Assembly (NCBI GenBank): GCA_019118445.1
Contig: DWYY01000101.1
Span: 1 to 37,312 of the forward strand
Direction of reading: 5' to 3'
DNA: 37,312 bases
Origin: Candidatus Eisenbergiella merdipullorum
Lineage (GTDB): Bacteria; Bacillota; Clostridia; Lachnospirales; Lachnospiraceae
The position numbers and the translations under genes were made by a program. Positions 140 to 34,632 of this stretch are shown here, in pieces. The notes below the pieces were generated by a model that was not told where the DNA came from, made no database searches, and worked only from the letters and a program-made list of their open reading frames with translations. Each line of letters opens with the position of its first letter. Position 1 is the stretch's first letter.

Positions 140-1189
140 CTATCTCGTCTGCAGGAATTCATATTCCCTCTGCGCCTTCGTGTCATCCGGATACAGCTCC
201 AGATACTCCTCCATGCGCAGCCTTGCCTGATCAAACTGTCCCAGATACTCATAGGCAACGATCTCATTGAACCGGAGCGTCTGCATGATCTGATTTCCTT
301 CCATGGCAATTCCCGACTGGAAGGCCGCAAGCGCCGCACTGTAATCTCCAATGCGCAGATCGCACAGGCCAAGCTGGTTATAAATCTGGGCATCCGGCGT
401 CTGGCTCAGGTAATTGTTGTAAACGCTGGCCGCGTAATTATAATCCCCAAGCTGCTCATAGGTCTGCCCCAGAAGGCTGATCACCTCGGAGGAGCTGTCC
501 GTATCCCTCGCACTTTCCAGCGCGTTTCTTGCGGTATCGAAGTTACCCAGATAGTAATTCATCCGGCCTCTGTTATAATCGCTCAGTCTGCTGTCCTCAT
601 CGTCCAGCACGGTCTGCAGATATCCCTGTCCCAGCTCCTGCTGCCCGTTTTCCGCACAACTGCAGAAAATATCGATCCTGAGGTCATAATCCTGAGGATT
701 GATGGATACGGCTGTATCAAAATCCGCCGAGGCAGCCTCCATGTCGCCCTGTACCAGCTCGATCACGCCCTTGAGATAATAAGCGTTCTTCTCCTTGGGC
801 CTGAGCGCGATGATCGCCTCATATACGCCCTTCGCGCCGTCCAGATTTCCCTGCTTGTAATAGGCTGTGGCAAGATAATAATTGATATCATAGTCCAACT
901 GATCCGGTCTCTCATCACTGTAGGAAAGAGCTCGCTGCAGGCTGCTTTCTGCAGAATCATACTGGGACAGGCCCATGTAGGCCAGTCCCATCCCCCGGTA
1001 GGCGAGCTGTGCGTCTTCTCCGTTCAAAACCGCCGCATCAAAGGACTTCAGCGCTTCCTCATATTCCAGTTGTTCCACCAGAGCCATGCCCTGATCCAGA
1101 TTTTCCGTTTTTCCGGAGCCGCAGCCGGAAAGCAGGGCAAGAAAGAAGATGGTCAGTATGGCTGTTATTTTTTTTCTATTCTGGTTCAT
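140..1189 (-). CDS. TPR-repeat lipoprotein
   Basis: A predicted lipoprotein of 349 residues. A basic start (MNQNRKK), a hydrophobic stretch and the lipobox LLSGC put the lipidated cysteine at residue 23, so the protein should be anchored to the outer face of the membrane. The rest is helical, with repeated tetratricopeptide-type units (for example the AYRGMGLAYMGLSQYDSAE and YYLATAYYKQGNLDGA segments), a scaffold for protein contacts. The start at 1189 is preferred over an upstream in-frame codon because GAGG lies about nine bases before it and the lipobox is then at a normal distance. It follows the truncated ATPase remnant at 1216-1332 and may be read from the promoter at 1378-1406. The partner is unknown. 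The TPR lipoprotein call is solid, the role is not. Confidence 0.85.
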   Translation of the reverse strand: MNQNRKKITAILTIFFLALLSGCGSGKTENLDQGMALVEQLEYEEALKSFDAAVLNGEDAQLAYRGMGLAYMGLSQYDSAESSLQRALSYSDERPDQLDYDINYYLATAYYKQGNLDGAKGVYEAIIALRPKEKNAYYLKGVIELVQGDMEAASADFDTAVSINPQDYDLRIDIFCSCAENGQQELGQGYLQTVLDDEDSRLSDYNRGRMNYYLGNFDTARNALESARDTDSSSEVISLLGQTYEQLGDYNYAASVYNNYLSQTPDAQIYNQLGLCDLRIGDYSAALAAFQSGIAMEGNQIMQTLRFNEIVAYEYLGQFDQARLRMEEYLELYPDDTKAQREYEFLQTR

Positions 1190-1215
1190 CTGTGGTTCCT
1201 CATTTTTCAGACATC

Positions 1216-1332
1216 TCAAGCCGTTTTTCCCGCGCCGTTATCTCCGATCAACAGATTTATGCCTGGCTGGAATGTTATCTGCATTCTGTCAATCGCCTTA
1301 AAATTTTCCATCGTTACAGATTCAAAATGCAT
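1216..1332 (-). pseudogene. N-terminal stump of an AAA/RecF-like ATPase
   Basis: A 38-codon reading frame starts MHFESVTMENFKAID and ends with a Walker A motif, GDNGAGKT, followed by one alanine and a TGA stop. This is the standard N-terminus of RecF/SMC/OLD-type ATPases (a short beta strand, 'NFKAI', then 'INLLIGDNGAGKT'), which normally continue for hundreds of residues. A ribosome binding site (GAGGAGG) lies very close before the ATG. The remainder of the gene is missing, and the lipoprotein gene begins 27 bases after the stop, so this reads as the scar of a deletion. It sits in the position where a jetD gene would be expected after jetC, but its sequence is not JetD-like. Confidence 0.7.
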
Positions 1333-1440: not shown

Positions 1441-4400
1441 TCATTCCTCTCCTTCCAGCTCTCCATAATCCTTTTTTTCAAATTCTTGGATAGAAATGCT
1501 CTTCTTGTTAGGATTGGCAAACACGAAGGTCTTGTCCACGTTCTCCAGGTAGTTCTGGATCTTGTCATTGGTAGCGCTGATGATGGCCTGGAAGCCAAGC
1601 CCGCGGATCAGTTCGATGCAGCTCGCCACTTTTTCCGCGTCCATCTTGGAAAACGCCTCATCCAGCACCACCAGGCGGATGGTCGGGCGGCGGGTTCCCC
1701 CGGGAGAAGCGCTGATGTGGTAGGCCTGGGCAAAGCTGGCAAGGAGCGCCACATACAGGGGGTTCTGCCCCTCCCCTCCGGAATTTTTCCGGATCATTTT
1801 GCTCAGGTCGATCACCAGGCGGTCATCCCCTTCCACGATCTGCTCCATTTCAAAGGAAAGGTAGGTGCGGTAGTCGGAATATTTTTCCATGTTCCGCTTC
1901 GCTTCCTCCTGCTGCTTCGCATCCGCTGTCTGGGGCGGAAGGAACATGCGGATCAGATCGTTCATCAGCGCGCCGTACTTCTTTTCATGGTCCATGGAAA
2001 ACAGATCCATCTGCCGGTCCATGGAGCCGGAAAGGGCGGACGGGTCGATCTCCAGGGATTCGTCCATGAACATGTCGTAGTATGCGCCGTCCGGTCCGCG
2101 GTTTCTGGAAATGCGGAACTGGTAGCGGTCCTTTCCAAAGTTCAGGCTCCGCAGGATGCGGTTCAGCTCGTCACGGCGCAGGAATGCCTCCTTGATGGCG
2201 CTGCGTATTTTGTAAATGAAGTCTTCCTTAAAGTGCTCCACAGCGGTCTGTGCCTGTTTTGCAGCGATTCTTTCATATTCCTGGATCTGTTCGCAGGAAA
2301 GGCGGTCGAGGAGCTCCTGATAATCCGTATTGTCCGCCGCGCTGGCCGAGAAATCCCGTCCCGGATGCTTTCTCAGATAGTCGCTGCGCAGATCCACAAG
2401 GGCGTCTTTCTTTTCCTCCAGCAGGCTCTGAGCCGCGGAGGCCTCTTCTCCGGTCTGTTTTAAAAGCGCGTCAAAGGAAGGTTTTCTGATGCCTGAGAAC
2501 CAGGTGTCGAAGGCCTCCTCCCAGTTCGGGCTGGAAACCAGGCTCTTCCTGCCGGAAAGAAGGGCTTCGTTCTTTTCCAGGACATCCTGGCCGTCCTTCT
2601 CCAGCTTCCGGTTCTGATCGTAAATGCGCAGTTTGACGGCATCGATCTCCTTTTCCAAGGCCCGCTGCCTGTCATCCACCTCGGACAGGCGTTCCTTCAG
2701 GGCTTCCACCGCGCCCTCGCCCACCTGGCTGAGCTTTTCGTCCAGACGGGCGAGCTGCTCCTGTTTTCTGCCTTTTTCCCGCATGTCGGAAAAAAGCTCC
2801 AGATAGGTTTCCGCGGGTTCTGACAGATATTCCAGGGACAGCAGGCGGGCTGCCTGCTCCGCCTCTTCTTCCCTGCGCTGCAGTTCCCGCCGCAGGCCGG
2901 AAAGCTGGGCGGAAAGCTCCTTCTGTCTTTTGTGCAGGCTCTTTTCACCGATGAAGGCGCGCTTTGTATACTGCTCCGGATTCAGACGGCGAAGCTGGAA
3001 GCTCTGATAGAGCAGGCAGTCCGCCGTCACGCCCACCCGGCACTGGCGGAGCTGTTCGATGGTTTCGCATTTGATCACATTTCCCAACAGAAAATTTACA
3101 TAGTTTTTCACATATTTTTCCCGGCATTCCACCTCTTCGGCGAGAGATGCGCTCCGGGCGGTAAATTCCTGTTCGGAAAGCTTTCCCGTATCCGCCAGGG
3201 CCACACGGGAAAAGCGGGCGGCGTCCAGCCCCTCATAGATTTCCATTGCCTGCGCCGCGAATGCGGGATCCACCATCAGTGTCAGCTTGTTCCAGCCGAG
3301 ATATCCTTCCAGGGCGTTTCTCCATTTTTCATCCCGGATGTCCAGAAGGTCAGCCAAGACGCGCACTGGGATCGTTTTCCCGATTTTTTCATACAGACCT
3401 CTCTGAATCTGTATCCTTGCCTCCTCCAGGGCTTTGGGGTAGGCTTTTTTCCCCATCTGGAGTTCCTTCAGGTCCTTTTCCAGAAGCGCCGCTTCCTTCT
3501 GCAGGCTTCTTTTTTCCGAAGCGGCGTCCTGCCGCTGCCTCTCCGCTTCGTCCCGGATCCCGCCCAGCTCCTTTTTCAGCCGCAGAAGCCCGTCTCCCGT
3601 GATCTCTCCCTTCCGGAAGGCGTCGATGTCCCACAGGGCCTGGTTGGAAATGGAGTCCTCTTCCTCCCAGGCGGCGAGGCTTTCGCAGAGGGCGTTCTTC
3701 TTCCGCTCGCTGCGCAGCAGAAGCTCCAGGTTTTCTGAAAGGTCTCTGCGCTTCGCCTCCAGCTCGCCGTAGCCGCTCTGCAGGATCTCCCGGTTGATCT
3801 CTTCATGTTCTTTCGCGCACTTCTCTTTCTGCCGGTTCAGGGACGCAAGGGTGTCCTCCAGGGTCTCCAGGTCCTTTTTCCCTGTTTCCATCCGCGCTTC
3901 CAGCAGGGAAATCTGTTCCTGCATCTGCATCAGTCCCAGCCTCTCCGTCCGGTAACGGAGGCTTCCCAGCACATCCTCCTGTCCGCGGACGGCCGCGAAA
4001 CCGTCCCGGATCTCCTCCAACTGTCCGATCTCCTCCGCCGTATCTTCGATCCTTTTGCGCATGCGGCCGTAAAGGATCACGCTCTCCTGCATGTCCTCGA
4101 TGTGAATGTCCTGCTCCATGCAGATATATTCCTTCACGAAATCCTCCAGCCGGATATTCATGCGGAAGGGAATGGCGCGCTTGAACAGTCTGGGAAATTT
4201 CTCCATATCCAGGCCGCCCAGATAAATGTCGTACAGGTTCCTGCGGAAACGTTCGTTATTCGAGGTGGCAAACCAGTCTTCCCTGGCAAAATTCCGGTTC
4301 AGCCAGGTCTTCAGCTCCACCGTGGTCATGGCGCGGGCCGCCCCGGTATTCTCTTTTACCGAAACCTCATATTCTGCAGGGTACGTCTGGGACGGCACAT

Positions 4401-4872
4401 CCAGGCTCATCTGTCCGCCCACCCGGTAAAAATGCTCCGGCAGGCCGCCCCTATGCCAGAAAAACAGGCGGGTGATCTCATTGGTCGCCGTTTCCACGTC
4501 GAACACCACGCCGATGCATTCCTTTTCCCCGGTGACGGTCTGGGTAAGCTCCAGGGCGATGGTGGTGGAAAAGTTCCGGTTCCTTTTGTATTTCGCCTGA
4601 TCATTTTCCCCGATGTTGATCATGCCGCGCAGATATTCGATCAGGCTCCGGTCGGAGTCGTCCGCTGCCGCCTTGTTGAAGAAGCCTCTGCCGTCCGTGT
4701 TGGCGTAGAGCACGATCTGCAGGGCGTCGATCACCGTTGACTTGCCGCTTCCGGAATGTCCTGTAAAAAAGTTAATGCTTCTGTTCAGCTCCAGCACCTT
4801 CGCGTCAATATAATGCCAGTTGTTCAGGACGATCCTGGTGACCGCCTTAAATGCCTGATTGTTATTCTCCAT
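1441..4872 (-). CDS. jetC: JetC/MksB-like SMC-type ATPase of a Wadjet-like complex
   Basis: A 1143-residue SMC/MukB-like ATPase. Walker A (GHSGSGKST) is at residues 38-46. Long charged coiled-coil stretches fill the middle, with a hinge-like globular part around residues 480-620. The C-terminal head holds the ABC signature NSGGEGQ near 1030 and Walker B VVLDEAF near 1068-1074. In the Wadjet/MksBEF family this subunit forms the DNA-translocating motor with JetA and JetB. Its start overlaps the end of jetB by 11 bases, so translation is coupled. The stop is followed by 108 bases without a gene and then an unrelated ATPase stump; no JetD is present. Orphan MksB-type condensin is the alternative name. 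Family assignment is strong, and the anti-plasmid function is uncertain without JetD. Confidence 0.88.
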   Translation of the reverse strand: MENNNQAFKAVTRIVLNNWHYIDAKVLELNRSINFFTGHSGSGKSTVIDALQIVLYANTDGRGFFNKAAADDSDRSLIEYLRGMINIGENDQAKYKRNRNFSTTIALELTQTVTGEKECIGVVFDVETATNEITRLFFWHRGGLPEHFYRVGGQMSLDVPSQTYPAEYEVSVKENTGAARAMTTVELKTWLNRNFAREDWFATSNNERFRRNLYDIYLGGLDMEKFPRLFKRAIPFRMNIRLEDFVKEYICMEQDIHIEDMQESVILYGRMRKRIEDTAEEIGQLEEIRDGFAAVRGQEDVLGSLRYRTERLGLMQMQEQISLLEARMETGKKDLETLEDTLASLNRQKEKCAKEHEEINREILQSGYGELEAKRRDLSENLELLLRSERKKNALCESLAAWEEEDSISNQALWDIDAFRKGEITGDGLLRLKKELGGIRDEAERQRQDAASEKRSLQKEAALLEKDLKELQMGKKAYPKALEEARIQIQRGLYEKIGKTIPVRVLADLLDIRDEKWRNALEGYLGWNKLTLMVDPAFAAQAMEIYEGLDAARFSRVALADTGKLSEQEFTARSASLAEEVECREKYVKNYVNFLLGNVIKCETIEQLRQCRVGVTADCLLYQSFQLRRLNPEQYTKRAFIGEKSLHKRQKELSAQLSGLRRELQRREEEAEQAARLLSLEYLSEPAETYLELFSDMREKGRKQEQLARLDEKLSQVGEGAVEALKERLSEVDDRQRALEKEIDAVKLRIYDQNRKLEKDGQDVLEKNEALLSGRKSLVSSPNWEEAFDTWFSGIRKPSFDALLKQTGEEASAAQSLLEEKKDALVDLRSDYLRKHPGRDFSASAADNTDYQELLDRLSCEQIQEYERIAAKQAQTAVEHFKEDFIYKIRSAIKEAFLRRDELNRILRSLNFGKDRYQFRISRNRGPDGAYYDMFMDESLEIDPSALSGSMDRQMDLFSMDHEKKYGALMNDLIRMFLPPQTADAKQQEEAKRNMEKYSDYRTYLSFEMEQIVEGDDRLVIDLSKMIRKNSGGEGQNPLYVALLASFAQAYHISASPGGTRRPTIRLVVLDEAFSKMDAEKVASCIELIRGLGFQAIISATNDKIQNYLENVDKTFVFANPNKKSISIQEFEKKDYGELEGEE

Positions 4873-5578
4873 TTACGGTCTCTCCTTCTTCCCGTGTGCC
4901 ATACTCCTCCCCGCTGTCCGCAACGGCAGCGTCCTCCGCCGGGCTGGAGCCTTCAGCAGCATCCCCCGCCGCGGCAGCCTCCTGTCCCGCTTCCTCGCCG
5001 AACACCGCCAGAAGCTTTTTTATATCCTCGCGCATCAGCAGGAGGCTGATGCAGGGATAGATGAGAATGCGCGTGTCTTCATTCAGCTCCTCCAGCGCGT
5101 CCAGCGGTTCGATCATCTGATATTTCTTGAGGATGGCGAGCGCCCTCCTGATCTCCGAAAGGGAGGACAGACTTCTGGTCAGGCGGAATTCACCGGCCTT
5201 GGCAGAAAGCGTGCCGAAGGTGGTGACGATGTTCACGCTGGAGGACGCCGCTGCCATCTGTTCATCATAGATCAGCTTCAACAGCAGCAGATAGATGGTC
5301 GCAAGCTTGGGAAGGCGCTCCCCCAGCAGGGCCTGCCCCTGGATATAGATGGCGCCGAGCTCCGTATTCTGCTCGATCAGGATCCCCGCCGCTTCCAGGT
5401 AATCTTTCAAAAATTCCATATGCTGCTCACAAAAATCATAATCCCGGTTCAGGACGAGCCGTCCCACCCTTTTATCATATTTTCTTTCCAGCAGAAAGGT
5501 CTGGCGGTAGAGCTGGCCGAGCACCGACTGCATCCGCTCCTGATCCGCACCGGAAAGACGGCTGATATATTCAAGCAT
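4862..5578 (-). CDS. jetB: JetB/MksE-like DUF4194 protein
   Basis: A 238-residue protein recognised as the DUF4194 (JetB/MksE) subunit from its size, its position between jetA and jetC, and its winged-helix-like core: a hydrophobic helix 'IYLLLLKLIYDEQ', then 'FGTLSAKAGEFRLTRS', and a C-terminal 'ALAILKKYQMIEPLD' wing. In MukBEF-like complexes this subunit bridges the kleisin and the ATPase heads. The ATG begins directly after the jetA stop codon, with no gap, and the 3' end overlaps jetC by 11 bases. The last 40 residues are a low-complexity acidic and alanine-rich tail (about residues 195-238), probably disordered and unlike the core. Confidence 0.85.
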   Translation of the reverse strand: MLEYISRLSGADQERMQSVLGQLYRQTFLLERKYDKRVGRLVLNRDYDFCEQHMEFLKDYLEAAGILIEQNTELGAIYIQGQALLGERLPKLATIYLLLLKLIYDEQMAAASSSVNIVTTFGTLSAKAGEFRLTRSLSSLSEIRRALAILKKYQMIEPLDALEELNEDTRILIYPCISLLLMREDIKKLLAVFGEEAGQEAAAAGDAAEGSSPAEDAAVADSGEEYGTREEGETVNGE

Positions 5579-7066
5579 TTATTTTTTCTCTCCCTTCTGG
5601 GGCGCCCCCGTTTTGGCTGCATCCCTTTTCCTTTTTATGAACATCATGGCAGGCCAGGTGTAGGGGCCGCACTGCACCTGATATCCCGCTTCCAGGACCT
5701 CATACCTGCCGTCCCTGCGGATGCTCAGGTCATAGGCAAGGATCAACTTTTCGAAATCTTCGTCCGTTTCCACCAGGAGCCGCCCTGTATCCAGGCAGCC
5801 GTTTTCCATATGTTCTTCGATATACTCTTCCACCTGGGTGCGGGTGAAGCGGTGGTGGATCCGGTTGAGCTTCAGGATCTCTTCTCTGGAAAGCTCCGGA
5901 TCCTTTTCCTCCGGCTCCAGCTCTTTCATAAAATTTCTTCTGTGCCGGCCCCGGTAGATGGCGTTTTCTCCCAGCACATCCCAGGAAGCCAGGTTCATCT
6001 TTTCCGCGGTCCGGCGCAGCCTGCGCTCCACCTCCGCTTCTTCCTCCGGCTCTCCCAGCCGGTTCAGAAGCTGGACCAAAAGGCCATGGCGGTCGCTCTC
6101 CCCGCTCAGAAGATAGTTCAGGCGGCTCAGCGTGGCACGGATATATTTGCTGTGCTCCCGGTCCAGGCTGGCAATGCGGCGCTCGATCATCTCAAAGCCC
6201 CTCTCGATCTGATCGATCAGATCCAGCACGTCCTCTTCCCCATGGGAAGAACGCCGGGCAAAAGAAGGACGCGGAGCCGGCGTGTCCTTCTTTCCCAAGC
6301 GCTGCTCTTCCTCCTTCTGTTTTGCGCGGACGCGTCCGAGCCAGGCGGTGTCCTCGCGCATCTCCTGCAGCCATCTGCAGATATCCGTTTTATAGATGTA
6401 AAAATTATCGCTGGTCTTGAGGATGTGGTATTTTCGCTCCACCACCTCTTCCACATAACCTTTCAGGTGTTCCTGCAGAAGCTCGCCGTAGTTCTGCTTT
6501 TCCAGAAGCCCGGCGAAAAAACGGTCCATATTGTGCAGCATGTCCTGCAGCGCCCGGTTCAGCTTTCTGGTGTTGACCAGGGCGGTCTTGAGCATGGACA
6601 GATTCATCCTCGCGTCATTTTTAAAGGAAAAAAGAGTGGCGTATACATTCTGGATATAAACCTGTGTATCTTCCTCCGGCTCGCTGGCAAGACGTTCAAA
6701 AGCCTCGATCATGATCGAGGCATAATCAGGTATAACGATATTTGCCGTCATGGTGGAGTAATCCTCCACCCTGCGCAGCCAGCCGAACCGGAGAAGGCGG
6801 TTCAGGATCCGCCCCGGCGCCGCTTCCTGCGCCTCCTCCTCCGTCTCTTCTTCCTCCCGCTTCAGGCCGCCCGGCCCCATCTGCATACACAGATCGGAAA
6901 GGACCTGGAGGCAGGCCTCGCGGCTCAGGAAATAATTGTTGTACTGATACTCGTCGTTGACGGCGAGCAGCGACTCTATGTAAATATCCCGGTTTACAGA
7001 CCGGAATAGGCTCCAGAAGGAAGCCGGTATCTCATAGTAAAAATCCAAAGTATCGTTTCCTCTCAT
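5579..7066 (-). CDS. jetA: JetA-like (DUF5716) kleisin subunit
   Basis: A 495-residue protein matching the type II JetA (DUF5716/MksF-like kleisin) family in size, order and content. It has an N-terminal winged-helix part that starts 'FYYEIPASFWSLFRSVN', helical middle segments, and a C-terminal wing with 'RDGRYEVLEAGYQV'. Kleisins link the two ATPase heads of SMC complexes. The annotated ATG overlaps the stop codon of the upstream GTPase-NYN gene by four bases (ATGA), which ties the two genes into one operon. A TTG six codons later, preceded by AGAGGA, is an alternative start that would place the conserved 'DFYYE' at the N-terminus. Confidence in the family is high; the start is ambiguous by six codons. 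Confidence 0.85.
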   Translation of the reverse strand: MRGNDTLDFYYEIPASFWSLFRSVNRDIYIESLLAVNDEYQYNNYFLSREACLQVLSDLCMQMGPGGLKREEEETEEEAQEAAPGRILNRLLRFGWLRRVEDYSTMTANIVIPDYASIMIEAFERLASEPEEDTQVYIQNVYATLFSFKNDARMNLSMLKTALVNTRKLNRALQDMLHNMDRFFAGLLEKQNYGELLQEHLKGYVEEVVERKYHILKTSDNFYIYKTDICRWLQEMREDTAWLGRVRAKQKEEEQRLGKKDTPAPRPSFARRSSHGEEDVLDLIDQIERGFEMIERRIASLDREHSKYIRATLSRLNYLLSGESDRHGLLVQLLNRLGEPEEEAEVERRLRRTAEKMNLASWDVLGENAIYRGRHRRNFMKELEPEEKDPELSREEILKLNRIHHRFTRTQVEEYIEEHMENGCLDTGRLLVETDEDFEKLILAYDLSIRRDGRYEVLEAGYQVQCGPYTWPAMMFIKRKRDAAKTGAPQKGEKK

Positions 7067-9837
7067 TCGTCTGACCGGGAGCGGCCGTCTGCAGTCCGCG
7101 TCATTTCCTCCAACTGTTTCTTCTGTTCTTCGGACATGGAATCCAGAAGATAATTTTTCTGCGTCCTCCGGTTCTCCAGATAATCCCCGCGCAGCCGTTC
7201 AGAGGCCAGGCGGATCTCTTCCTTCAGGTCCCTCGCCGACAAAAGGCGGCAGCCCTGTCCCCGGATGATGATCTGTTCCAGGTCGTCCGAGGTGGCGACG
7301 GTGATATCGTATTTCGCCCCGTTTTCATGGGTAAACTTCTCGATGTACTGGTCCGCCGTCTCCGCCTCTTTGGTATAAACCACATGGATGTTATGATAAT
7401 CCGTCACTTCCGTTTCATGTCCCTGTACCCGGTAGGCGTCGAACACCACGATCACCTGACAGCCAGCCATGCCCTGATAATTGCACAGGATATCCTGCAG
7501 CAGGCCGCGTGCTCCGTCCACATTCTTTTCCGCAAGCGCGCGGAGCTCCTCCCAGGCAAAAATGATGTTGTAGCCATCCACCAGCAGATAGCGTTCTCTG
7601 CGGGCAGGACGATCTGACCCCCTATATTTCGCATCGGCATCCCCGCCGGTGCTTCCCGCTACGCTTTCCCCGTACACCCGGCGGCCGGAGCGGTAACGGT
7701 TCCAGCCGTCCTTTCTGGGAACCGACTTGTCCCTCTTATTGGCACCGTAGGTGCGTTCGAGGATCTCGTCGATCTCCTCGGTCCCCACCCAGACTTCCTC
7801 TTTTTTCCCGTCCTCTTTTCTGGAAACAGCCTGTACGGACCGGTCGGGAAGCTCCTGCTCTTCCTGCTCCCCCGCCCAGGCAAAAGGAAGATGCATATAA
7901 TCCGGCACCCTGTCCCATGGCACCACAAAGCCGGAACCATGGGTGCAGAACACGGAATCCGCCGGGTTTTCCACATCCCGCGCCGGATTATAGCCGATAC
8001 GCTCCATCACCTCCGCCGTATTGTGGCAGGGTTCATATCCCTTCAGAGTAACGAACAGCCTGCCGTTTCCCCGGCTGTAGGAGACGACCTCCTTCTGATA
8101 GTCCTGCATTTCCGCAGCGGGGGCACATCCCGTCAGAACAGCCGTCTCCCCGTTGTTTTCAGGCGTCTGAAAAGAGCCGTGCATCCGCTCGATATCCGTC
8201 ATTGCCCTTCCCACCAGACCGGCAGGGATCTCCAGCCGGAATTCATACCAGGGCTCCAGGAGCACGCAGTCCGCCTGCATCAGCCCCTGCCGCACCGCGC
8301 GGTAGGTGGCCTGCCGGAAATCGCCGCCCTCCGTATGCTTCAGATGGGCCCGCCCAGAAAGCAGGGTAATCTTCATGTCCGTGATAGACGCGCCCGTCAG
8401 CACGCCGGGATGCTCCCGCTCCTGCAGATGGGTCAGGATCAGCCTCTGCCAGTTTTTATCCAGCACATCCTCGCTGCAGACTGAAGCCACGGTCAGCCCG
8501 CTGCCAGGTTCTCCCGGTTCCAGCAGAAGATGCACCTCCGCATAATGGCGCAGCGGCTCAAAATGGCCCACACCCTCCACCGTATTCGCTATGGTTTCTT
8601 TATAAACGATGTTTCCGGTTCCAAATTCCACCTCCACACCAAAGCGTTCCAGGATCAGGCTTTTCAGGATCTCCGTCTGCACCTCTCCCATGACCTGGGC
8701 ATGGATTTCCTGCAATTTTTCATTCCATACGATATGTAACTGCGGCTCTTCCTCCTCGAGCTGCCTCAGCTTGGGGAGCAGGACTGCCGGCTCACAGCCC
8801 GCAGGAAGCAGGATCTGATAGGTCAGGACCGGCTGCAGGAGAGGCAAGGCTCCCTCCCGCTCCCATCCAAGCCCCTCTCCCGGATAGGACCGCGTCAGCC
8901 CCGTGACGGCACAGACCGTCCCGGCCGGAGCTTCATTTGCCAGCTCGTACTTTTCCCCTGAATAAATACGGATCTGATCGACCTTCTCCTCCCACTGTTC
9001 TCCCTCCTGCACGCCGGTCAGCGTGCTTTTCACCTTCAGGGTGCCGCCCGTGACCTTCAGATAGGTCAGCCGGTTTCCCTGGGCATCCCTTGCGATCTTA
9101 TAGATCCTCGCGCCAAATCCTTCGGGCCATACGCGCTCCGGAAGCCACCTCTCCAGCCCGTCCAGCAGCTGTGATACGCCCTCCAGCTTCAGGGCGGAAC
9201 CGAAATAACAGGGGAACAGGCTTCTTTCCGCGACCAGCCTGCGGATCGTCTTTTCTTCCACCCGTCCCTGATCCAGGAAGCTTTCCAGCGCTTCCTCCGA
9301 GCAAACGGCGATTTCCTCATAAAAGGCAGGATCCATTTCTGTGGAAAAATCCACGCAGCTCTCGTCCAGCTCCCCTTTTAACTGAGAAAGGAGCGCCGCC
9401 CGGTCGCAGCCTGGCTGGTCCATCTTGTTGACAAAGATAAAAACCGGAATCCCATAGCGTTTCAGCAGATACCAGAGCGTCCTGGTATGCCCCTGGATCC
9501 CGTCCGGGCCGCTTACGATCAGCACAGCCGCGTCCAGCACCTGCAGAGTGCGCTCCATCTCCGCCGAAAAGTCCACATGCCCCGGCGTGTCCAGAAGCGT
9601 GACCGCAAGGCTTTTCCAGACGAACTGAGCCTGTTTGGAGAAAATGGTGATCCCTCTCTCCCGCTCCAGCTCATAGTTATCCAGAAAGGCGTCCCGGTTG
9701 TCCACCCGCCCTATTTTCCGGATACTTCCGCTCAGATAGAGAAACGCTTCCGAAAGCGTTGTTTTCCCGGCGTCTACATGGGCCAACAGACCAGCACATA
9801 TTCGTTTTATCGGTTTTTTCTCTTTCTGTTCGCCCAA
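7063..9837 (-). CDS. TetM/EF-G-like translational GTPase fused to a YacP/Rae1-like NYN domain
   Basis: A 924-residue fusion. The N-terminal part follows the ribosomal-protection (TetM/O/W) and EF-G layout. G1 AHVDAGKTT is at residues 19-27, then DTPGHVDFS and NKMD, then beta-barrel and domain III-V regions. The last 170 residues, from 'YLLVDGYNIIFAWEEL', form a NYN nuclease domain of the YacP/Rae1 family with the acidic residues VDGYN, VVFDAY, ADQYIEK and ATSDDLEQ. Where TetM has its domain IV tip YSPVST, this protein has HLKHTEGG, so a tetracycline-resistance call is not safe. The start is set at a TTG with GGAGG eight bases upstream; an in-frame GTG 15 bases earlier lies on that ribosome site. 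The stop overlaps jetA. Both parts act at the ribosomal A site in known relatives. Confidence 0.88.
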   Translation of the reverse strand: MGEQKEKKPIKRICAGLLAHVDAGKTTLSEAFLYLSGSIRKIGRVDNRDAFLDNYELERERGITIFSKQAQFVWKSLAVTLLDTPGHVDFSAEMERTLQVLDAAVLIVSGPDGIQGHTRTLWYLLKRYGIPVFIFVNKMDQPGCDRAALLSQLKGELDESCVDFSTEMDPAFYEEIAVCSEEALESFLDQGRVEEKTIRRLVAERSLFPCYFGSALKLEGVSQLLDGLERWLPERVWPEGFGARIYKIARDAQGNRLTYLKVTGGTLKVKSTLTGVQEGEQWEEKVDQIRIYSGEKYELANEAPAGTVCAVTGLTRSYPGEGLGWEREGALPLLQPVLTYQILLPAGCEPAVLLPKLRQLEEEEPQLHIVWNEKLQEIHAQVMGEVQTEILKSLILERFGVEVEFGTGNIVYKETIANTVEGVGHFEPLRHYAEVHLLLEPGEPGSGLTVASVCSEDVLDKNWQRLILTHLQEREHPGVLTGASITDMKITLLSGRAHLKHTEGGDFRQATYRAVRQGLMQADCVLLEPWYEFRLEIPAGLVGRAMTDIERMHGSFQTPENNGETAVLTGCAPAAEMQDYQKEVVSYSRGNGRLFVTLKGYEPCHNTAEVMERIGYNPARDVENPADSVFCTHGSGFVVPWDRVPDYMHLPFAWAGEQEEQELPDRSVQAVSRKEDGKKEEVWVGTEEIDEILERTYGANKRDKSVPRKDGWNRYRSGRRVYGESVAGSTGGDADAKYRGSDRPARRERYLLVDGYNIIFAWEELRALAEKNVDGARGLLQDILCNYQGMAGCQVIVVFDAYRVQGHETEVTDYHNIHVVYTKEAETADQYIEKFTHENGAKYDITVATSDDLEQIIIRGQGCRLLSARDLKEEIRLASERLRGDYLENRRTQKNYLLDSMSEEQKKQLEEMTRTADGRSRSDE

Positions 9838-9841
9838 TGAA

Positions 9842-9895
9842 AACACCTCCACGTAAGGACATACTGATTTTTAGTATATCACAAGAGGAGGTGTT
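9842..9895 (-). promoter_or_regulatory. Extended -10 promoter inside a nine-base inverted repeat, upstream of GTPase-NYN
   Basis: On the minus strand an extended -10 element, TGATATACT, spans 9873-9881, with no good -35. Around it is a perfect nine-base inverted repeat: AACACCTCC (9895-9887) and GGAGGTGTT (9850-9842), 36 bases apart. The second arm is the ribosome binding site of the GTPase gene. If transcription starts upstream of 9895 the first arm could mask that site; if it starts near 9866 the repeat could instead be a protein-binding site. Confidence 0.45.
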
Positions 9896-22177: not shown

Positions 22178-22687
22178 ATGAACACATCAGAAGTGATCCG
22201 GACAAGAAGGAGCATCCGGAAATATCGGAAAGGGGTCGTGATCCCCAAAGAACACATCGAACAGATGCTGGAAGCTGCCATGATGGCGCCCAGCGCCTGC
22301 AACCGCCGGCCCTGGGAATTTGTTGTCGTCCAGAAGCCGGAGGTGCTGGAACAGATCATGGAAATCCATCCCTACACCCAGATGCTGAAGACCGCCTCCC
22401 TCGCCATCATTGTCTGCGGCAGGCCGGACCTTCAGGAGGGCATCTGCGATGGCTTCTGGCCGCAGGACTGCGGAGCCGCCATTGAAAACCTGCTCCTTCA
22501 GGCCGCAGAGCTCGGCTACGGCACCTGCTGGTGCGGCTGCTACCCCGCCATGAAGCGGGCGGAAGCGCTGCAGAAGCTCCTGGACGTCGCCAGCATCCCG
22601 CTTGCGGTCATAGCGGTAGGCGAGGCGGATGAAGCCCCGGACGCAAGAGGGTTCTATGATGCTTCCCGGGTGAAATGGATTTTGTAA
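22178..22687 (+). CDS. Nitroreductase-family flavoprotein
   Basis: A 169-residue nitroreductase-like enzyme. The start has the usual RTRRSIRKYRKG phosphate-binding segment, MMAPSACNRRPWEFVVV follows, and GTCWCGCYPA in the second half is the typical flavin-contact region. Family members use FMN to reduce nitro compounds or quinones with NAD(P)H. The short length suggests no added iron-sulfur domain. The ATG at 22178 is chosen over an in-frame upstream start because AGGAGG lies right before it. It is the third gene of the HxlR operon, consistent with a redox or xenobiotic response. Confidence 0.88.
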   Translation: MNTSEVIRTRRSIRKYRKGVVIPKEHIEQMLEAAMMAPSACNRRPWEFVVVQKPEVLEQIMEIHPYTQMLKTASLAIIVCGRPDLQEGICDGFWPQDCGAAIENLLLQAAELGYGTCWCGCYPAMKRAEALQKLLDVASIPLAVIAVGEADEAPDARGFYDASRVKWIL

Positions 22688-22704
22688 AGCCGTTTATCCC
22701 ACAT

Positions 22705-23241
22705 TCAGGACAGATGCAGCAGCAAAGGCTCATGCCCGATTTCTTTCAGGATCTTTCCCGTCAGATCATCAAACGCCAGGCGCAGGCTTGTGGTATTGAC
22801 GCAGGGATGGCAGCCGAAATATTCCTGCTTCAGGATCTCTTCATCTATCAGAAGCCGCACCTGTCCTTCATGGTCGTTCATCAGCCCCAGCACGCTGACC
22901 GCCCCGGGACTCAGATCCAGCAGGCGCTCCATATCCTCCGGCGGTGCGAAGGACAGCCTGGAGCTTCCTGCCAGACGGGAAACCTCTCCGGAATGGAACT
23001 TTTTTGCTCCGGGAAGCATCAGCAGATAATATGCCGTTTTCTGATGATCGCACAGGAACAGGTTTTTGCAGATCGCCGCGTTCAGGATGCGGTCCACCTC
23101 CAGGCAGTCTTCCATCGTCCGCATGGGCGCATGGTCCACATATTCATATTCGATATTCAGCCGGTCCAGCAGGTCGTACACGCGGATTTCCCGCTCCTGC
23201 CTGCCGGAAAGAGCTTCCGGCCTTCCCTTCATCAGATGCAT
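22705..23241 (-). CDS. YbaK/ProX-type aminoacyl-tRNA deacylase
   Basis: A 178-residue protein of the YbaK/ProXp family. It has YVDHAPMRTMEDC near residue 35, the lysine in AICKNLFLCDHQK, and the substrate-pocket segments VSVLGLMNDHEGQV and EYFGCHPCVNTTSLRL. Members of the 'prolyl-tRNA synthetase-associated' type remove alanine wrongly joined to tRNA-Pro. The gene starts seven bases after the beta-glucuronidase stop, so the two share a transcript, which is an odd pairing without an obvious reason. The gene after it, on the plus strand, converges. Confidence 0.85.
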   Translation of the reverse strand: MHLMKGRPEALSGRQEREIRVYDLLDRLNIEYEYVDHAPMRTMEDCLEVDRILNAAICKNLFLCDHQKTAYYLLMLPGAKKFHSGEVSRLAGSSRLSFAPPEDMERLLDLSPGAVSVLGLMNDHEGQVRLLIDEEILKQEYFGCHPCVNTTSLRLAFDDLTGKILKEIGHEPLLLHLS

Positions 23242-23247
23242 TTCTGC

Positions 23248-25092
23248 CTACCCCTTCTTGTAGTCCCGCGGGAGGCTTTCCCAGCGCTTTTTGAAATAAT
23301 AAGCAGCCGCCTTTGGCTGGCGCTGTCTGGTAAAAATACCCTTTTTATTTCCGTTCATGCGCATGATTCCCTCGGTTGTCTGAAAGTCCGCGAAATTCCA
23401 AACCAGTTCTCCGGCCACGAAATCGTAGGAATCAAAAACCCGGTGGCACATTTCCAGATATTCCACCTGATACTCCTGGCTCCACATGACGGACGGAAGC
23501 TTGTGTTCTGCGGAACTAGTGTCCGTGCCGTATTCTGTAAAGATCACCGGCTTATTCATCTGTTTGGCCGCCCAACCGTCCATTTCTTCGCGGAACGCCT
23601 CTTCCGCGTCCGAAATCTCATATCCGCCCATGGAATACCAGCCATAATAACGGTTAAGGGAAAGAAAATCGCTGAACTGATAGCATTTACAGGTATCCGG
23701 CCCGGAATTGCCGATCATCGCAAAGGTGCGCGGCCGTTTCTGTGGATCCACCTCTCTGGCTCTGCTGAAAATCTTTTCAAAATAAGGGACGCAAGCGTCA
23801 TCCGTCGTCTCCGGCTCATTAAAAAGACTCCAAGCGATCACGCAGGGATGATTTTTATCACGGCAGATCATGTCTTCCACACACTGAAGATGATGCGCAA
23901 GAAGCTCAGGAATGGTCGGGGCCTGGAAGAAGGAGGTCCTTTTCCCGGTGGACGCCTCCGCGAAATTCATCAGGCTGCGGAACAGGCCGACCGCCGCCAC
24001 CTCATCGATGATCAGGATCCCTTCTCTGTCCGCCATCTGGTAGATTTCCTCGCTGTAAGGATAATGGGAGGTACGGAAGCAGTTTGCCCCGATCCATTTC
24101 ATGCACTCAAAATCCCGCTTCATCACCCCAATGTTAAAGCCCCGTCCGACAATATCGCTGTCCTCATGCTTTCCAAAGCCTTTCAGGTATACTTTTCTGC
24201 CGTTTAACAGAATGTCCCTGCCGCGGACTTCCACAGTGCGGATGCCAATCCGGTCCGAATACTCATCGATCAGCTCCTGTCCGTTCCTGATCTGAATCCG
24301 GATTTCGTAGAGATATCCGTCTCCCACATCCCATTTATGTGCTTCCGGCACGCGGATCATGCCCTCTCTGCCTGAAGCGGATGATACCTGCTTTTTCTCC
24401 GCGTCATACAGATCTACAAACACTTCATGAGCCTCTTGGGGAACGCCTTCCTGTATTCCCGCCGTCTCCACAGAATAATGGATCAGCGCGTCCGCACCGT
24501 CGAATTCAAAGCTTACGGAATAATCCTCCACATGTTCCTTGGGATAGGCGATCAGCTTTACCGGCCGCTGAAGTCCGGAATAATTAAAGAAATCAAAATA
24601 AGGCTTCGACATCTTTTTCCCATTCTTCAGCACCTTTGTGGCCCCGCAGGGAATGCGCGTTTCACTCAGTTCGTTGTTGACCTGCACGACCACCCGATTG
24701 AAAGCATTGTACTGCACTATGTCCGTCACCACCGCAAGAAACGGCAGGAACCCGCCTTCATGGGCAGCAGCCTGCATGCCGTTTACGTATACCTTCGCAC
24801 AGTGTGTCGCGCTTCCGAACCGAATGGCTACTTCCTTTCCCTTCCATTCTCCCGGAACATAAACTTCTGTTTCATACCAGACATCTCCCGTATATTCCCG
24901 GATATCCTTATCCGTATAGAAATCCTGGAAGCTCGCAGGAACAGGAATCATCTCACTGCCGGGCAGGCCATCCTTCCATCCCTTTTCCTCTCCTTCCTGT
25001 TTCCCATCCAGAGAAAATTTCCACATCCCATCCATGCTCACGGCGCGCCGTGTGGCTGAATTTCGGGGATATAGCATCTGACATGTTCTCAT
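23248..25092 (-). CDS. uidA: GH2 beta-glucuronidase, Loop-1 type
   Basis: A 614-residue GH2 enzyme close in layout to E. coli GusA. A jelly-roll domain comes first, then an immunoglobulin-like domain and a TIM barrel from about residue 290. The acid/base E426 is in FNEPE, and the nucleophile E520 is in FTEYGTD. The NxK motif that recognises glucuronate is N582-K583-K584 in GNKKGIFTR, so a galactosidase is ruled out. The loop after DEVAAVG (about 369-397) is as long as Loop 1 in E. coli, a class known to act on drug glucuronides. No signal peptide is seen. ATG 25092 has AAGG upstream; a GTG two codons earlier is the alternative. It has its own promoter after the importer terminator. Confidence 0.92.
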   Translation of the reverse strand: MRTCQMLYPRNSATRRAVSMDGMWKFSLDGKQEGEEKGWKDGLPGSEMIPVPASFQDFYTDKDIREYTGDVWYETEVYVPGEWKGKEVAIRFGSATHCAKVYVNGMQAAAHEGGFLPFLAVVTDIVQYNAFNRVVVQVNNELSETRIPCGATKVLKNGKKMSKPYFDFFNYSGLQRPVKLIAYPKEHVEDYSVSFEFDGADALIHYSVETAGIQEGVPQEAHEVFVDLYDAEKKQVSSASGREGMIRVPEAHKWDVGDGYLYEIRIQIRNGQELIDEYSDRIGIRTVEVRGRDILLNGRKVYLKGFGKHEDSDIVGRGFNIGVMKRDFECMKWIGANCFRTSHYPYSEEIYQMADREGILIIDEVAAVGLFRSLMNFAEASTGKRTSFFQAPTIPELLAHHLQCVEDMICRDKNHPCVIAWSLFNEPETTDDACVPYFEKIFSRAREVDPQKRPRTFAMIGNSGPDTCKCYQFSDFLSLNRYYGWYSMGGYEISDAEEAFREEMDGWAAKQMNKPVIFTEYGTDTSSAEHKLPSVMWSQEYQVEYLEMCHRVFDSYDFVAGELVWNFADFQTTEGIMRMNGNKKGIFTRQRQPKAAAYYFKKRWESLPRDYKKG

Positions 25093-25208: not shown

Positions 25209-26114
25209 TCAACCCTTTACAGCTCCGATCATAACGCCCTTTACGAAATACTTCTGCACAAAAGGGTAAATGCACAGGACAGGCACCGTCGTCAGAACGA
25301 TCGTGGAATATTTGATCGCTTCCGCGAACTGGTTGACCTGGTCGTTCTCCGCCGCCGCGGAATTCAGCACGTTGGAGTTCGCGATCAGGATCGCCCTCAT
25401 GATATTCTGGATCGGCAGCTTCTCATTATCCTTCAGATAGATGGATGCGTTGAACCAGGAATTCCAGTGCCCTACCCCGTAGTACAGCAGCAATACCGCC
25501 AGCGTCGGCTTGATCAGCGGCGCTACGATACGGAACAGGATCACCAGGTCATTGGCCCCGTCGATATACGCCGACTCCCTCAGCGAATCCGGCAGCCCTT
25601 CGATCGCCGTCTTGCAGATGATCGAATTGTATACGCTCAGCGCTCCCGGCAGGATCAGCGCCCACAGCGAATTGTATAATCCCAGGTCGCGGATGTTCAG
25701 GTAAGCGGGGATCATCCCTCCGGAAAAGAACATCGTGAACAGGATCAGGAACTGCACCACCGGCTTGAACATCATCTTTTTCGACGCCAGGAAATATCCC
25801 GTAAACAGCGTCAGCAGGATGTTGATCGGCAGCGATACCACCAGCACGATCAGGATGTTCCGGTAGCCGGAGAGCAGCAGCGGGTGCGTTAAGGCCAGCC
25901 CGTAGGCCCCCACCGTGAACTCATGCGGCCACAGGAGCAGCCCCGGATGGGAGACCAGATACGTATTGGAGGTAAACGAAGCGCACACCACATACCAGAT
26001 CGGGTACAGGGTCACGACGCACAGCAGGATCAGGATGACTGCATTGATCACGCTGAATATCCTGTCCCCCAGGGATTCTTTTACTTTCACGCTTGTAAGA
26101 TTGTTTTTCTTCAT
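25209..26114 (-). CDS. Sugar ABC importer permease, LplC/YtcP type
   Basis: A 301-residue permease with six membrane segments, starting MKKNNLTSVKVKESLGDRIF. The EAA loop is ESAYIDGANDLVILFRIVAPL, which couples to an ATPase. It ends in VQKYFVKGVMIGAVKG, the invariant end of the LplC/YtcP family, whose studied members import aldouronates or oligogalacturonates. The ATG at 26114 is chosen because GGGAGG lies ten bases before it; a longer reading starts 20 codons earlier inside the neighbour gene. No ATPase gene is in the operon, so a shared MsmX-type ATPase elsewhere probably drives it. Confidence 0.88.
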   Translation of the reverse strand: MKKNNLTSVKVKESLGDRIFSVINAVILILLCVVTLYPIWYVVCASFTSNTYLVSHPGLLLWPHEFTVGAYGLALTHPLLLSGYRNILIVLVVSLPINILLTLFTGYFLASKKMMFKPVVQFLILFTMFFSGGMIPAYLNIRDLGLYNSLWALILPGALSVYNSIICKTAIEGLPDSLRESAYIDGANDLVILFRIVAPLIKPTLAVLLLYYGVGHWNSWFNASIYLKDNEKLPIQNIMRAILIANSNVLNSAAAENDQVNQFAEAIKYSTIVLTTVPVLCIYPFVQKYFVKGVMIGAVKG

Positions 26115-26133
26115 GGCAGTATTTCCTCCCTTT

Positions 26134-27123
26134 TCAGAACAGGCTGGATTCCGTAGCCTTCTTGCTGATCTCATTCGTTATCATGAGGAAGACCACATTC
26201 ACCAGCGTATTGAACAGGCCGATCGCCGTTGACTTGGAATACATGGGCGAACCTCCGCTCGTCGGGAAGGACAGGCGGTAGGTGTAGGTGGAAATGACGT
26301 CCGCCACCTCATAGGTCGTCGCGTTATACAACAGCAGGATCTTCTCATATCCCACGTTCAGGATGTTGCCCATGCGCAGGATGAAGAGGATCATGATTGT
26401 CGGCATCAGGCCGGGCAGCGTGATATGGAGCATCTGCTGGAACCGGTTCGCACCATCCACACGCGCCGCTTCATACTGTTCCTGGTCGATGGCGGACAGC
26501 GCGGCCAGGTAGATGATGGAATCCCACCCGATCTTCTGCCAGATATCCGACACCACATATACCGTCCGGAAATATTTGGGATTGGCCAGATAGTTCTCCG
26601 CCACCCCGCCGAGAGCTGTAGCGATCTGGGCGAACAGACCGTCCTGCATGCAGAACACCTTGATGATACCGCACATAACGACCGTTGAGATGAAGTACGG
26701 CATATAGGTGATCGTCTGCACCGTGCGCTTGAACGCCTTGTTGCGCACCTCGTTGATCAACAGTGCCAGGATGATCGGCGTGGGGAACCCGAACAGGATC
26801 GTCAGGCCGCTGATCAGGAACGTGTTCTTGATCACGCGCGGGAAATAGGGGTCTGTGATAAAGTTGAGGAACCATTTATACCAGGGGTCCGCCCAGGAAG
26901 AACCCGCGATCCCCCTCGTGATCTTATAGTCCTTAAAGGCGATGATCAGGCCGTACATCGGTTTATAACAGAACAGCGCCAGGTAAATGAGCACCGGGAT
27001 GATCATGATGTATTTCCACTTGTTCATGTTCCAGTCTCTTCTGAGCCTCTGGCCGAATCTTCTGAGCCTCTGGCCGAATGTCTTGGTTCCGGTGCCGTTT
27101 ACATTCACAGCATCTGCTTTCAT
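26134..27123 (-). CDS. Sugar ABC importer permease, LplB type
   Basis: A 329-residue permease of the LplB family. Its first membrane helix is KYIMIIPVLIYLALFCYKPMYG, the coupling loop EQYEAARVDGANRFQQMLHITLPGL, and the end is NEISKKATESSLF, typical of the family. Near the N-terminus a seven-residue unit, FGQRLRR, is repeated in tandem because of a 21-base duplication at 27038-27079. GGAGGAAGGAT precedes the ATG. It sits between the binding protein (90 bases upstream, across a stem-loop) and the second permease. Confidence 0.9.
   Translation of the reverse strand: MKADAVNVNGTGTKTFGQRLRRFGQRLRRDWNMNKWKYIMIIPVLIYLALFCYKPMYGLIIAFKDYKITRGIAGSSWADPWYKWFLNFITDPYFPRVIKNTFLISGLTILFGFPTPIILALLINEVRNKAFKRTVQTITYMPYFISTVVMCGIIKVFCMQDGLFAQIATALGGVAENYLANPKYFRTVYVVSDIWQKIGWDSIIYLAALSAIDQEQYEAARVDGANRFQQMLHITLPGLMPTIMILFILRMGNILNVGYEKILLLYNATTYEVADVISTYTYRLSFPTSGGSPMYSKSTAIGLFNTLVNVVFLMITNEISKKATESSLF
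27038..27079. repeat. Perfect 21-base tandem duplication within lplB-like gene
   Basis: Two exact copies of a 21-base unit (27038-27058 and 27059-27079) sit side by side. They encode FGQRLRR twice in the cytoplasmic N-terminus of the LplB-like permease. In-frame and near-perfect, so recent; the copy number may vary between strains. Confidence 0.9.
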
Positions 27124-27212: not shown

Positions 27213-28925
27213 TTAACGTGCCACATACCGGTCATAGCAGGCCTGACGGATCTCAAGTATACGGGTTAAGTTGTAGGTTTCCAGATCAGCCAGATACTGT
27301 TCCCATACAGCGTCGTCATCGATATCCTTCGAGCCGTTCAGGAATGCGCCAAAGCTCTCATCCACATAGGTCGTGATGTTCTGTCCAATCTCGTCCATCT
27401 CATCCGACTCCTCCGTGGTATAGGTCGCGCCGACAGGCCATTTCCATCCGCTGGTAACCGCTGCATTCTTCTCTTCATCATCCGGGTAAACATAATACCA
27501 GGTATCGTTTGCTTCAATCGCTTCCGCACTGTTCTTCTCATACAGCAGGTTGGTCGCCTGGATGCAGGAGCTTCCAAAGGTAGCGCCCACATACTTGGTC
27601 ATCGGGTCAACGTCCGGATCATCTTTTACCAGGCTGGTATAAGCCGGGACTCCCTCATCATTGTACTCCCAGGATACGCCTTCGTCCCCGTAGTTCCAAT
27701 ATAAGAATCCCTCGTCGGTATATGCGTAGTTCAGCATCTGCAGGCAGAGCTTCATGGTTTCTTCATCCGCCGTTGTGGTGATAACAGCGGTCTGCGTACC
27801 GATACCGGGGCCTCCGAAGATGCAGGAAAGAGAACCGTCATCCGCGGTCGGGTAAGGAATCCCGATCCAGACCGCTTCTTTTCCGGCTGCCTCACGCTCG
27901 GAATTCCAGTTGCTCAACTGTCCCATAGAGGTCAGGGAAATACCGCACTTATCATTGTGGATCTTATCCTTGATCGTGGTGTCGTCTTCGGTCAGGATAT
28001 CCTGGTCGATCAGGCCTTCCTCCCAAAGCTTGTTCAGCCAGCTGACATATTCCCGCCATTCCGGCTGGGCAGCCGCAAGGCCTACCGTACCGTCCTTCAC
28101 GAACCAGCCGTTGCTTGCGGAAGCATCTGCGGTGCCATATGCTCCGAACGCGCCGGCAATGCCCATTGCCTTAAATCTGATGGAATAAGCCGCATTAAAG
28201 GTTGCGCCATACTTCTCGTTGAACACGCGGATCACGTTTTCAAACTCGGAGATGGTCTTGGGAATCTCCAGGCCGCACTCCTCCAGCCAGTCCTTACGCA
28301 CGACAGGCCCCTGATAGGAGTCGTTCCAGCCGCCGTCCTCACGGAAGAAGCCGAACGCATAATACCGGCCGTCATCCGTCTTCATGGCCCTGTCATAAGC
28401 GGGATTGCTCTGAAGCCATGCATAATAATCAGGCGCATATTCCTGGATATAATCGGTCAGATCCCAGATGATCCCGTCATCCAGATACTGGTTCGCATTG
28501 TTCATCCAATATGTCTGCATGATGTTCGGCAGGCTTGCCGGATCCGCCAGCAGCGTCGTCGTATAGGTGTTGCCGTCAGAGCCCGTCGTCGGGAACGACC
28601 ACTCGATATCCACGCCAAGATGTTCAGCCAGCCCGATATGGAACGGAGATTCGTCCGCGCTTGCGAACTTCTCGTGCGGCAGGATATTATCCTGCGCATA
28701 CCAGGATACTGTAACATCGCTGCTCAAGGGATAGGTAATGCTTCCCGGTTCTGCTGCGGCAGCATCGCCGCCCGCCTCATCTGTTGTTGTACCCGCCGCA
28801 GAGGATGTATCAGATGACGTATCCGCTGAACCTCCAGAGCTGGAACTTTGCTGTGACCCGCATCCTACAATCAGCATTGCAGCCATTGTAATGATACTGG
28901 TTACTTTTAATAATTTCCTTCTCAT
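27213..28925 (-). CDS. Extracellular solute-binding lipoprotein, LplA type
   Basis: A 570-residue binding protein with lipobox LIVGC (cysteine at residue 22) after a signal peptide MRRKLLKVTSIITMAAM, followed by a Ser/Thr/Gly-rich linker. The size (over 500 residues), the tryptophan-rich content and the neighbours fit LplA-type binding proteins of aldouronate or oligogalacturonate importers. AAGGAGG precedes the ATG. It is the first gene of the importer operon and is divergent from the AraC regulator gene. Because beta- and alpha-glucuronidases lie on both sides, glucuronic acid-bearing oligosaccharides or glucuronides are the likely substrates, which is an inference. Confidence 0.9.
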   Translation of the reverse strand: MRRKLLKVTSIITMAAMLIVGCGSQQSSSSGGSADTSSDTSSAAGTTTDEAGGDAAAAEPGSITYPLSSDVTVSWYAQDNILPHEKFASADESPFHIGLAEHLGVDIEWSFPTTGSDGNTYTTTLLADPASLPNIMQTYWMNNANQYLDDGIIWDLTDYIQEYAPDYYAWLQSNPAYDRAMKTDDGRYYAFGFFREDGGWNDSYQGPVVRKDWLEECGLEIPKTISEFENVIRVFNEKYGATFNAAYSIRFKAMGIAGAFGAYGTADASASNGWFVKDGTVGLAAAQPEWREYVSWLNKLWEEGLIDQDILTEDDTTIKDKIHNDKCGISLTSMGQLSNWNSEREAAGKEAVWIGIPYPTADDGSLSCIFGGPGIGTQTAVITTTADEETMKLCLQMLNYAYTDEGFLYWNYGDEGVSWEYNDEGVPAYTSLVKDDPDVDPMTKYVGATFGSSCIQATNLLYEKNSAEAIEANDTWYYVYPDDEEKNAAVTSGWKWPVGATYTTEESDEMDEIGQNITTYVDESFGAFLNGSKDIDDDAVWEQYLADLETYNLTRILEIRQACYDRYVAR

Positions 28926-34586: not shown

Positions 34587-34632
34587 TTGCAGTCTCCTTC
34601 TTCTATTCCTGCTGCCTGAAGCGACATATCTG

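What the first reader, a model, noticed from the sequence alone, without database searches (positions are those of the whole stretch)
1441..9837. JetABC without JetD, joined in one operon to the GTPase-NYN gene
jetA, jetB and jetC are present with coupled starts, but no jetD follows, and the first gene of the operon is the GTPase-NYN fusion, whose stop overlaps the jetA start. Wadjet needs the JetD nuclease to cut plasmids. This operon may be a MksBEF-style condensin, or a Wadjet-like system in which the NYN domain replaces JetD or senses translation. The second possibility would be new.
Basis: partly seen in the sequence, partly recalled or inferred. Interest (0 to 1): 0.85.

Follow-up and report, generated by a model that had tools for sequence, protein, structure and literature searches.

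The report
Plasmid-defence motor missing its cutting enzyme
This gut bacterium keeps three of the four genes of a known plasmid-destroying system but lacks the gene for the DNA-cutting part, a loss seen again and again in its relatives, while the neighbouring translation-factor gene is an ordinary core gene that happens to sit beside it.

Summary
A type I Wadjet jetA-jetB-jetC set (1441-7066, minus strand) lies directly behind an EF-G/Tet-like GTPase fused to a YacP-type NYN domain (7063-9852). No jetD is found in the locus, in the 78%-complete genome, or in a completely sequenced relative. The joint reading fails. NYN_YacP is near-universal in the family (135 of 150 genomes; JetA in 38 of 150). 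GTPase-NYN adjoins jetA only in the Eisenbergiella group (7 of 77 named loci). One same-genus genome has it without jetABC, followed by the TPR gene that flanks the window's cassette. E. porci has GTPase-NYN, jetABC and jetD in a row. The better story is recurrent JetD loss: in this jetABC clade 46 of 64 loci lack an adjacent jetD. The label needs 15 changes on the jetABC tree, while JetD follows the jetABC tree, so JetD was probably ancestral and lost many times. JetABC stays under purifying selection without it. I read it as an MksBEF-like, nuclease-free loop-extruding SMC complex derived from Wadjet; function is untested. JetD-less Wadjet operons are in print, so this is a new member of a known kind.

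The parts
1441..4872 (-). jetC (type I Wadjet SMC/MukB-like ATPase, 1143 aa), ATPase motifs present
4862..5578 (-). jetB (KITE/MukE-like, DUF4194, 238 aa)
5579..7066 (-). jetA (kleisin, PF18982, 495 aa from the ATG; a TTG 18 nt further in fits relatives better)
7063..9852 (-). EF-G/Tet-like translational GTPase fused to a YacP-type NYN domain; widespread gene of the family, neighbour rather than part of the system
1219..1332 (-). short stretch that reads like the N-terminus of an AAA/OLD-type ATPase (Walker A), ending in a stop just before the TPR gene; in E. porci jetD is the first gene behind jetC
   Evidence: read from the translation; no family search was run on it
140..1219 (-). TPR lipoprotein gene (the ATG is further in); right flank of the cassette and, in G107, next gene after GTPase-NYN

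Best explanation
The locus is a chromosomal type I Wadjet cassette, lying between two resident genes (GTPase-NYN and a TPR lipoprotein), that has lost its nuclease gene jetD. What remains (SMC JetC, kleisin JetA, KITE JetB) is intact and selected. It most likely works as a nuclease-free, ATP-driven DNA-loop-extruding SMC complex of the MksBEF kind, beside the cell's ordinary Smc-ScpAB (only ScpA was searched for and found). The GTPase-NYN protein is a separate translation/RNA factor that at most shares the transcript. Shown here: the anatomy, the absence of JetD, its recurrence in relatives, purifying selection, and the independence of the GTPase-NYN gene. Inferred: that absence means loss, loop extrusion, and a condensin-like or silencing role.
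For: JetD lies right after JetC in 18 of 64 loci of this clade and not in 46, window included. The label needs 15 changes on the JetABC tree, 14 forced by starred branches, against a shuffled mean of 15.9, while the 18 JetDs follow the JetABC tree (Pearson 0.64, 0 of 2000 permutations as high), so loss from an ancestral JetABCD is favoured. E. porci (L035) keeps jetD; E. tayi (L068), the complete genome L036 and the avian loci L031 and L032 do not. Of the 45 named JetD-less genomes, 27 have no JetD_C hit, 8 only weak ones, 9 have their hit in another Wadjet-like locus and 1 a detached JetD of the same clade. dN/dS between the window and L031, L032, L033, L083 is 0.10-0.19 for jetA/B/C, like the neighbouring GTPase-NYN gene in the same pairs (0.12-0.15). 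No column of JetA, B or C separates JetD+ from JetD- rows beyond label permutation (lowest p 0.06). ScpA is found in the own genome. Empty site in G107, no jet match in its 8.5-kb stretch; G107 is nested in the genus.
Against: No functional datum. The own genome is 78% complete, so a jetD on a missing stretch cannot be excluded; JetDs of this clade away from jetABC do occur (L175, L179). GTPase-NYN and jetA are adjacent in the 7 named Eisenbergiella-group loci where both could be seen, which one could read as selection for linkage. dN/dS in the window's pairs is higher than in most pairs from other genera (0.03-0.11), though the neighbour gene is equally high. JetD+ rows are slightly more conserved than JetD- rows (not significant). 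Recurrent gain of JetD is not formally excluded.
Confidence: 0.72

Rival explanations
1. A new Wadjet-like system: the GTPase-NYN protein replaces JetD as nuclease effector or couples the SMC sensor to translation.
For: The genes are adjacent, in tandem, and possibly overlapping in the window; adjacency holds in 7 named Eisenbergiella-group loci.
Against: NYN_YacP is found in 135 of 150 family genomes against 38 of 150 with JetA; 70 of 77 testable named jet loci lack it upstream; E. porci has it with jetD present; G107 has it without jetABC; the start overlap is not conserved. YacP-NYN is described as an RNase-type domain (PMC4342817, passage).
Confidence: 0.04
2. Nuclease in trans: JetABC works as a full Wadjet with a JetD encoded elsewhere.
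For: JetDs of this clade stand away from jetABC in the L072 and L046 genomes, in family genome G026 (13 kb off) and perhaps G065 (another contig).
Against: 27 of 45 named JetD-less genomes have no JetD_C hit anywhere; in the 13-genome genus only E. porci (G232) and G238 have a JetD by profile, that of G238 in a second complete system. Some of these genomes are incomplete drafts.
Confidence: 0.1
3. A decaying defence remnant without function.
For: All four subunits are required for plasmid restriction in B. subtilis (PMC10586767, passage); G107 lacks the whole cassette; a JetD remnant in L110 shows decay.
Against: All three reading frames are intact with low dN/dS, equal to the neighbouring gene; the JetD-less state is spread over many lineages with JetABC kept.
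Confidence: 0.14

Closest known systems
Wadjet type I (JetABCD; MksBEFG; EptABCD)
   Same: JetA, JetB and JetC match PADLOC type I profiles over most of their length, in the same gene order, with ATPase motifs present; E. porci carries the four-gene form at the same site.
   Different: No JetD nuclease, hence no expected plasmid cleavage.
MksBEF / MukBEF-type complexes without MksG/JetD
   Same: Three-subunit SMC-kleisin-KITE set without the nuclease. The review PMC10586767 (passage) says that P. [quoted passage not shown] PMC7617805 (passages) states that several Wadjet-group members lack MksG/JetD.
   Different: Recurrent absence inside one Lachnospiraceae clade, with JetD+ and JetD- forms as close relatives, several at matching sites.
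JetD-less Wadjet I of Stenotrophomonas maltophilia (PMC11680222, passages)
   Same: Conserved jetA, jetB and jetC without jetD in a chromosomal island.
   Different: Other phylum; called probably inactive there.
Tet-like GTPase with YacP-NYN domain (PMC4342817, passage)
   Same: Same domain fusion, reported there from ten Clostridiales species.
   Different: No SMC link in the passage read; here the upstream neighbour of jetA.

Membership tests
Wadjet type I (JetABCD) | JetA, JetB, JetC of type I in order | tested here: met
Wadjet type I (JetABCD) | JetD nuclease encoded with or near jetABC | tested here: not met
   none in the window or the own (78% complete) genome
Wadjet type I (JetABCD) | Restriction of small circular plasmids by cleavage | not testable with these tools
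   needs transformation assays
MksBEF-type SMC complex without MksG/JetD | SMC, kleisin and KITE with ATPase motifs, no nuclease gene | tested here: met
MksBEF-type SMC complex without MksG/JetD | Maintained by selection without the nuclease | tested here: met
   dN/dS 0.10-0.19 between the window and four relatives
MksBEF-type SMC complex without MksG/JetD | Role in chromosome organisation | not testable with these tools
   needs Hi-C or segregation assays
Joint JetABC plus GTPase-NYN system | Conserved linkage or co-occurrence of the four genes across relatives | tested here: not met
   linkage only in the Eisenbergiella group; each occurs without the other
Tetracycline ribosomal protection proteins | Score above the curated NCBIfam cut-off | tested here: not met
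   tet_protect 406.8 bits against cut-off 775

The most novel reading that the evidence does not exclude
In one Lachnospiraceae clade the Wadjet motor has repeatedly been freed from its nuclease and kept for a selected, nuclease-independent job, for instance silencing or sequestering foreign circular DNA by loop extrusion alone, or serving as a second condensin. Defence would then be turned into a bare motor many times in parallel, with close JetD+ and JetD- sisters, some at matching sites.
Probability: 0.35. Interest if true: 0.7.

Novelty: new member of a known kind. Interest (0 to 1): 0.42.

Why it matters
The GTPase-NYN link can be dropped. What remains is a natural experiment: JetD presence changes some 14 or 15 times on the tree of closely related JetABC operons, several with a JetD-bearing sister in matching surroundings. 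That makes the question of what JetABC does on its own testable with matched pairs; [quoted passage not shown] It also warns that jetABC calls in gut Bacillota should not be counted as plasmid defence without checking jetD.

Tried and rejected
Rejected: NYN as JetD substitute (see rivals). A common replacement effector behind JetC: of the 49 loci listed I gave the first downstream gene of 10 to Pfam; nine different families came out (OTCase, ABC_ATPase, MoxR-type AAA, GntR/FCD, peptidase M20, metallophosphoesterase, dehydroquinase twice, phosphorylase, AraC); the other 39 were not scanned. Plasmid carriage: 3 of 72,556 plasmid records match JetA, all under 26% identity. JetB N-terminus (the review names an IFDR motif there as a JetD contact): I see no IFDR in the first 75 aligned residues and the N-terminus looks alike in JetD+ and JetD- rows; inconclusive. 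A JetD-interface signature in JetA/B/C: no column beyond permutation.

Limits: the 80 named loci are the best of 157 by likeness to the window's JetA, so 46 of 64 describes this clade only. 17 of 81 loci (window included) were dropped because JetC was cut or absent or fewer than 1400 nt followed it. The family sample used PF09983 and an 8-kb rule; contig ends were not checked, and some of its genomes are also among the named ones (identical JetDs). L033 and L083, used for dN/dS, end 0.6 and 1.1 kb after jetC; their genomes show no JetD above the cut-off. dN/dS is a simple Nei-Gojobori count with high dS in some pairs.

Full report
Observation. Pfam and PADLOC identify them as an EF-G-type GTPase with a YacP NYN domain and as JetA1, JetB1 and JetC1. 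The GTPase scores far below the curated cut-off for tetracycline protection proteins. The next gene on the strand is a TPR lipoprotein (140-1219). JetD_C is not found in the genome, nor does a full-length JetD alignment find one. The genome is 77.8% complete in 205 contigs, so its own silence is weak evidence; relatives had to decide.

Is the GTPase-NYN gene part of the system? The evidence says no. NYN_YacP is found in 135 of 150 genomes of the family, in most of them in one open frame of about 850-1000 residues, that is apparently as the fusion (read by eye from the table; about a dozen stand in short frames). JetA is found in 38 of 150. In 80 named loci around JetA homologues, 77 have more than 1 kb upstream of jetA, and the NYN end of a GTPase-NYN gene lies there in 7: six named Eisenbergiella and L036, which groups with E. 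tayi. In the same-genus genome G107, which has no JetA, a GTPase-NYN gene (71% and 75% identity in its two parts) is followed by the TPR lipoprotein gene (59% over the 105 residues before the contig ends), with no jet match in the 8.5-kb stretch. These are the window's two flanks without the jet genes. On a GTPase-NYN tree G107 is nested among the jet-bearing Eisenbergiella, so one insertion and a later loss is the simplest account. Within the genus 10 of 13 genomes have JetA and 10 of 13 the NYN domain; two of those without JetA also lack NYN and may simply miss the region. The fusion itself was reported in ten Clostridiales species (PMC4342817, passage).

JetD. I built a JetD profile from the family's JetD loci. 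Among loci with a full JetC and at least 1400 nt behind it, 18 of 64 have JetD right after JetC and 46 do not, the window included. One of the 18 is E. porci, with GTPase-NYN, jetA, jetB, jetC and jetD in a row. Several JetD+ and JetD- loci share neighbours, on both sides for L098 and L082, L103 and L108, L050 and L065, on the left for L105 and L104. A tblastn with the 18 JetDs found a remnant behind jetC only in L110.

History. On the tree of concatenated JetABC the JetD label needs 15 changes, 14 of them forced by starred branches, and is no more clustered than shuffled labels (mean 15.9). The 18 JetDs nevertheless follow the JetABC tree (Pearson 0.64, Spearman 0.50 between distances, 0 of 2000 permutations as high by Pearson). 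JetD is thus most simply ancestral and lost many times; the counts themselves cannot tell gain from loss. In the family sample, drawn without regard to jet genes, 3 of 18 members of this clade (JetA at least 40% identical) have JetD within 8 kb against 20 of 23 other JetA loci (Fisher p 7.5e-6). Missing JetD is a habit of this clade, not of Wadjet in the family.

Elsewhere in the genome? Of the 45 named JetD-less genomes, 27 have no JetD_C hit, 8 have only weak hits (full-profile E 1e-12 to 4e-5 against 5e-73 or better for the best piece of true JetDs), 9 have their hit in another Wadjet-like locus (in two of these JetD is split over two frames, in two the locus is of a distant kind that I did not type), and 1, that of L072, has a detached JetD of the same clade. 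A second detached case, L046, was outside the 64. In the genus, the JetD profile finds one copy in situ (E. porci) and two copies in second systems.

Selection. Between the window and L031, L032, L033 and L083 dN/dS is 0.10-0.19 for jetA, jetB and jetC, equal to the neighbouring gene in the same pairs (0.12-0.15). Over all pairs without adjacent JetD on either side where a value could be formed, values lie between 0.03 and 0.19; pairs with a JetD+ member give 0.03-0.11, so the window's group is at the high end, as is its neighbour gene. JetD+ rows are slightly more conserved than JetD- rows, but not beyond label permutation (p 0.16-0.25 for means, 0.06 or more for the best column). The complex kept its constraint without JetD.

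Mechanism. From published work (PMC10586767, passages), JetABC is the shape-sensing, ATP-driven motor and JetD the cutter, and P. aeruginosa MksBEF likely arose by loss of JetD. PMC7617805 (passages) notes that several Wadjet-group members lack the nuclease, and PMC11680222 (passages) describes a conserved JetD-less Wadjet I in Stenotrophomonas. By analogy the window's complex most likely extrudes DNA loops without cutting, beside an ordinary Smc-ScpAB (ScpA found; Smc and ScpB not searched). Whether it organises the chromosome, hinders foreign DNA, or both, is inference.

Literature. Eight full-text searches (one search listed 15 of 24 papers) of the open library showed no report of recurrent JetD loss in Lachnospiraceae or of a jetABC/GTPase-NYN link in titles and abstract starts, nor did the passages I read of eight papers. 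Subscription papers and preprints are not covered, and the operon list of PMC7617805 (Data S1) was not seen; it may hold some of these loci.

Noticed in passing
window 1219-1332 (-): Between jetC and the TPR gene the window reads an N-terminal AAA/OLD-like ATPase fragment with a Walker A motif, cut short; the interval right of jetC differs between Eisenbergiella loci (OTCase-like gene in L031; JetD plus further genes in L035; a 731-732-aa gene in L036 and L068).
   Followed up: partly
L175:7956-9122, L179:1415-2668: JetD genes of the same JetD clade without jetABC neighbours, in genomes whose jetABC has no adjacent JetD.
   Followed up: partly
L181:56-4474: Two small genes (156 and 150 aa) stand between a jetC part and jetD.
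   Followed up: no
L059, L064, L066, L067, L069, L073: jetA is separated from jetB by other DNA (about 9 kb in L059, 2 kb in L064), or jetB and jetC are not within the locus held.
   Followed up: no
L110:7736-8089: Short JetD remnant directly behind jetC, matching two separate parts of JetD.
   Followed up: partly
window 31098-34667 (-): Large glycoside hydrolase family 115 protein near two ABC permeases (25212-27123) and a DUF4147/MOFRL protein: perhaps a glycan-use cluster.
   Followed up: no
window 22675-24204 (+) and 27216-28925 (-): Open frames of 510 and 570 aa without a Pfam match at E 0.001; the second lies beside the ABC permeases and could be their binding protein.
   Followed up: no
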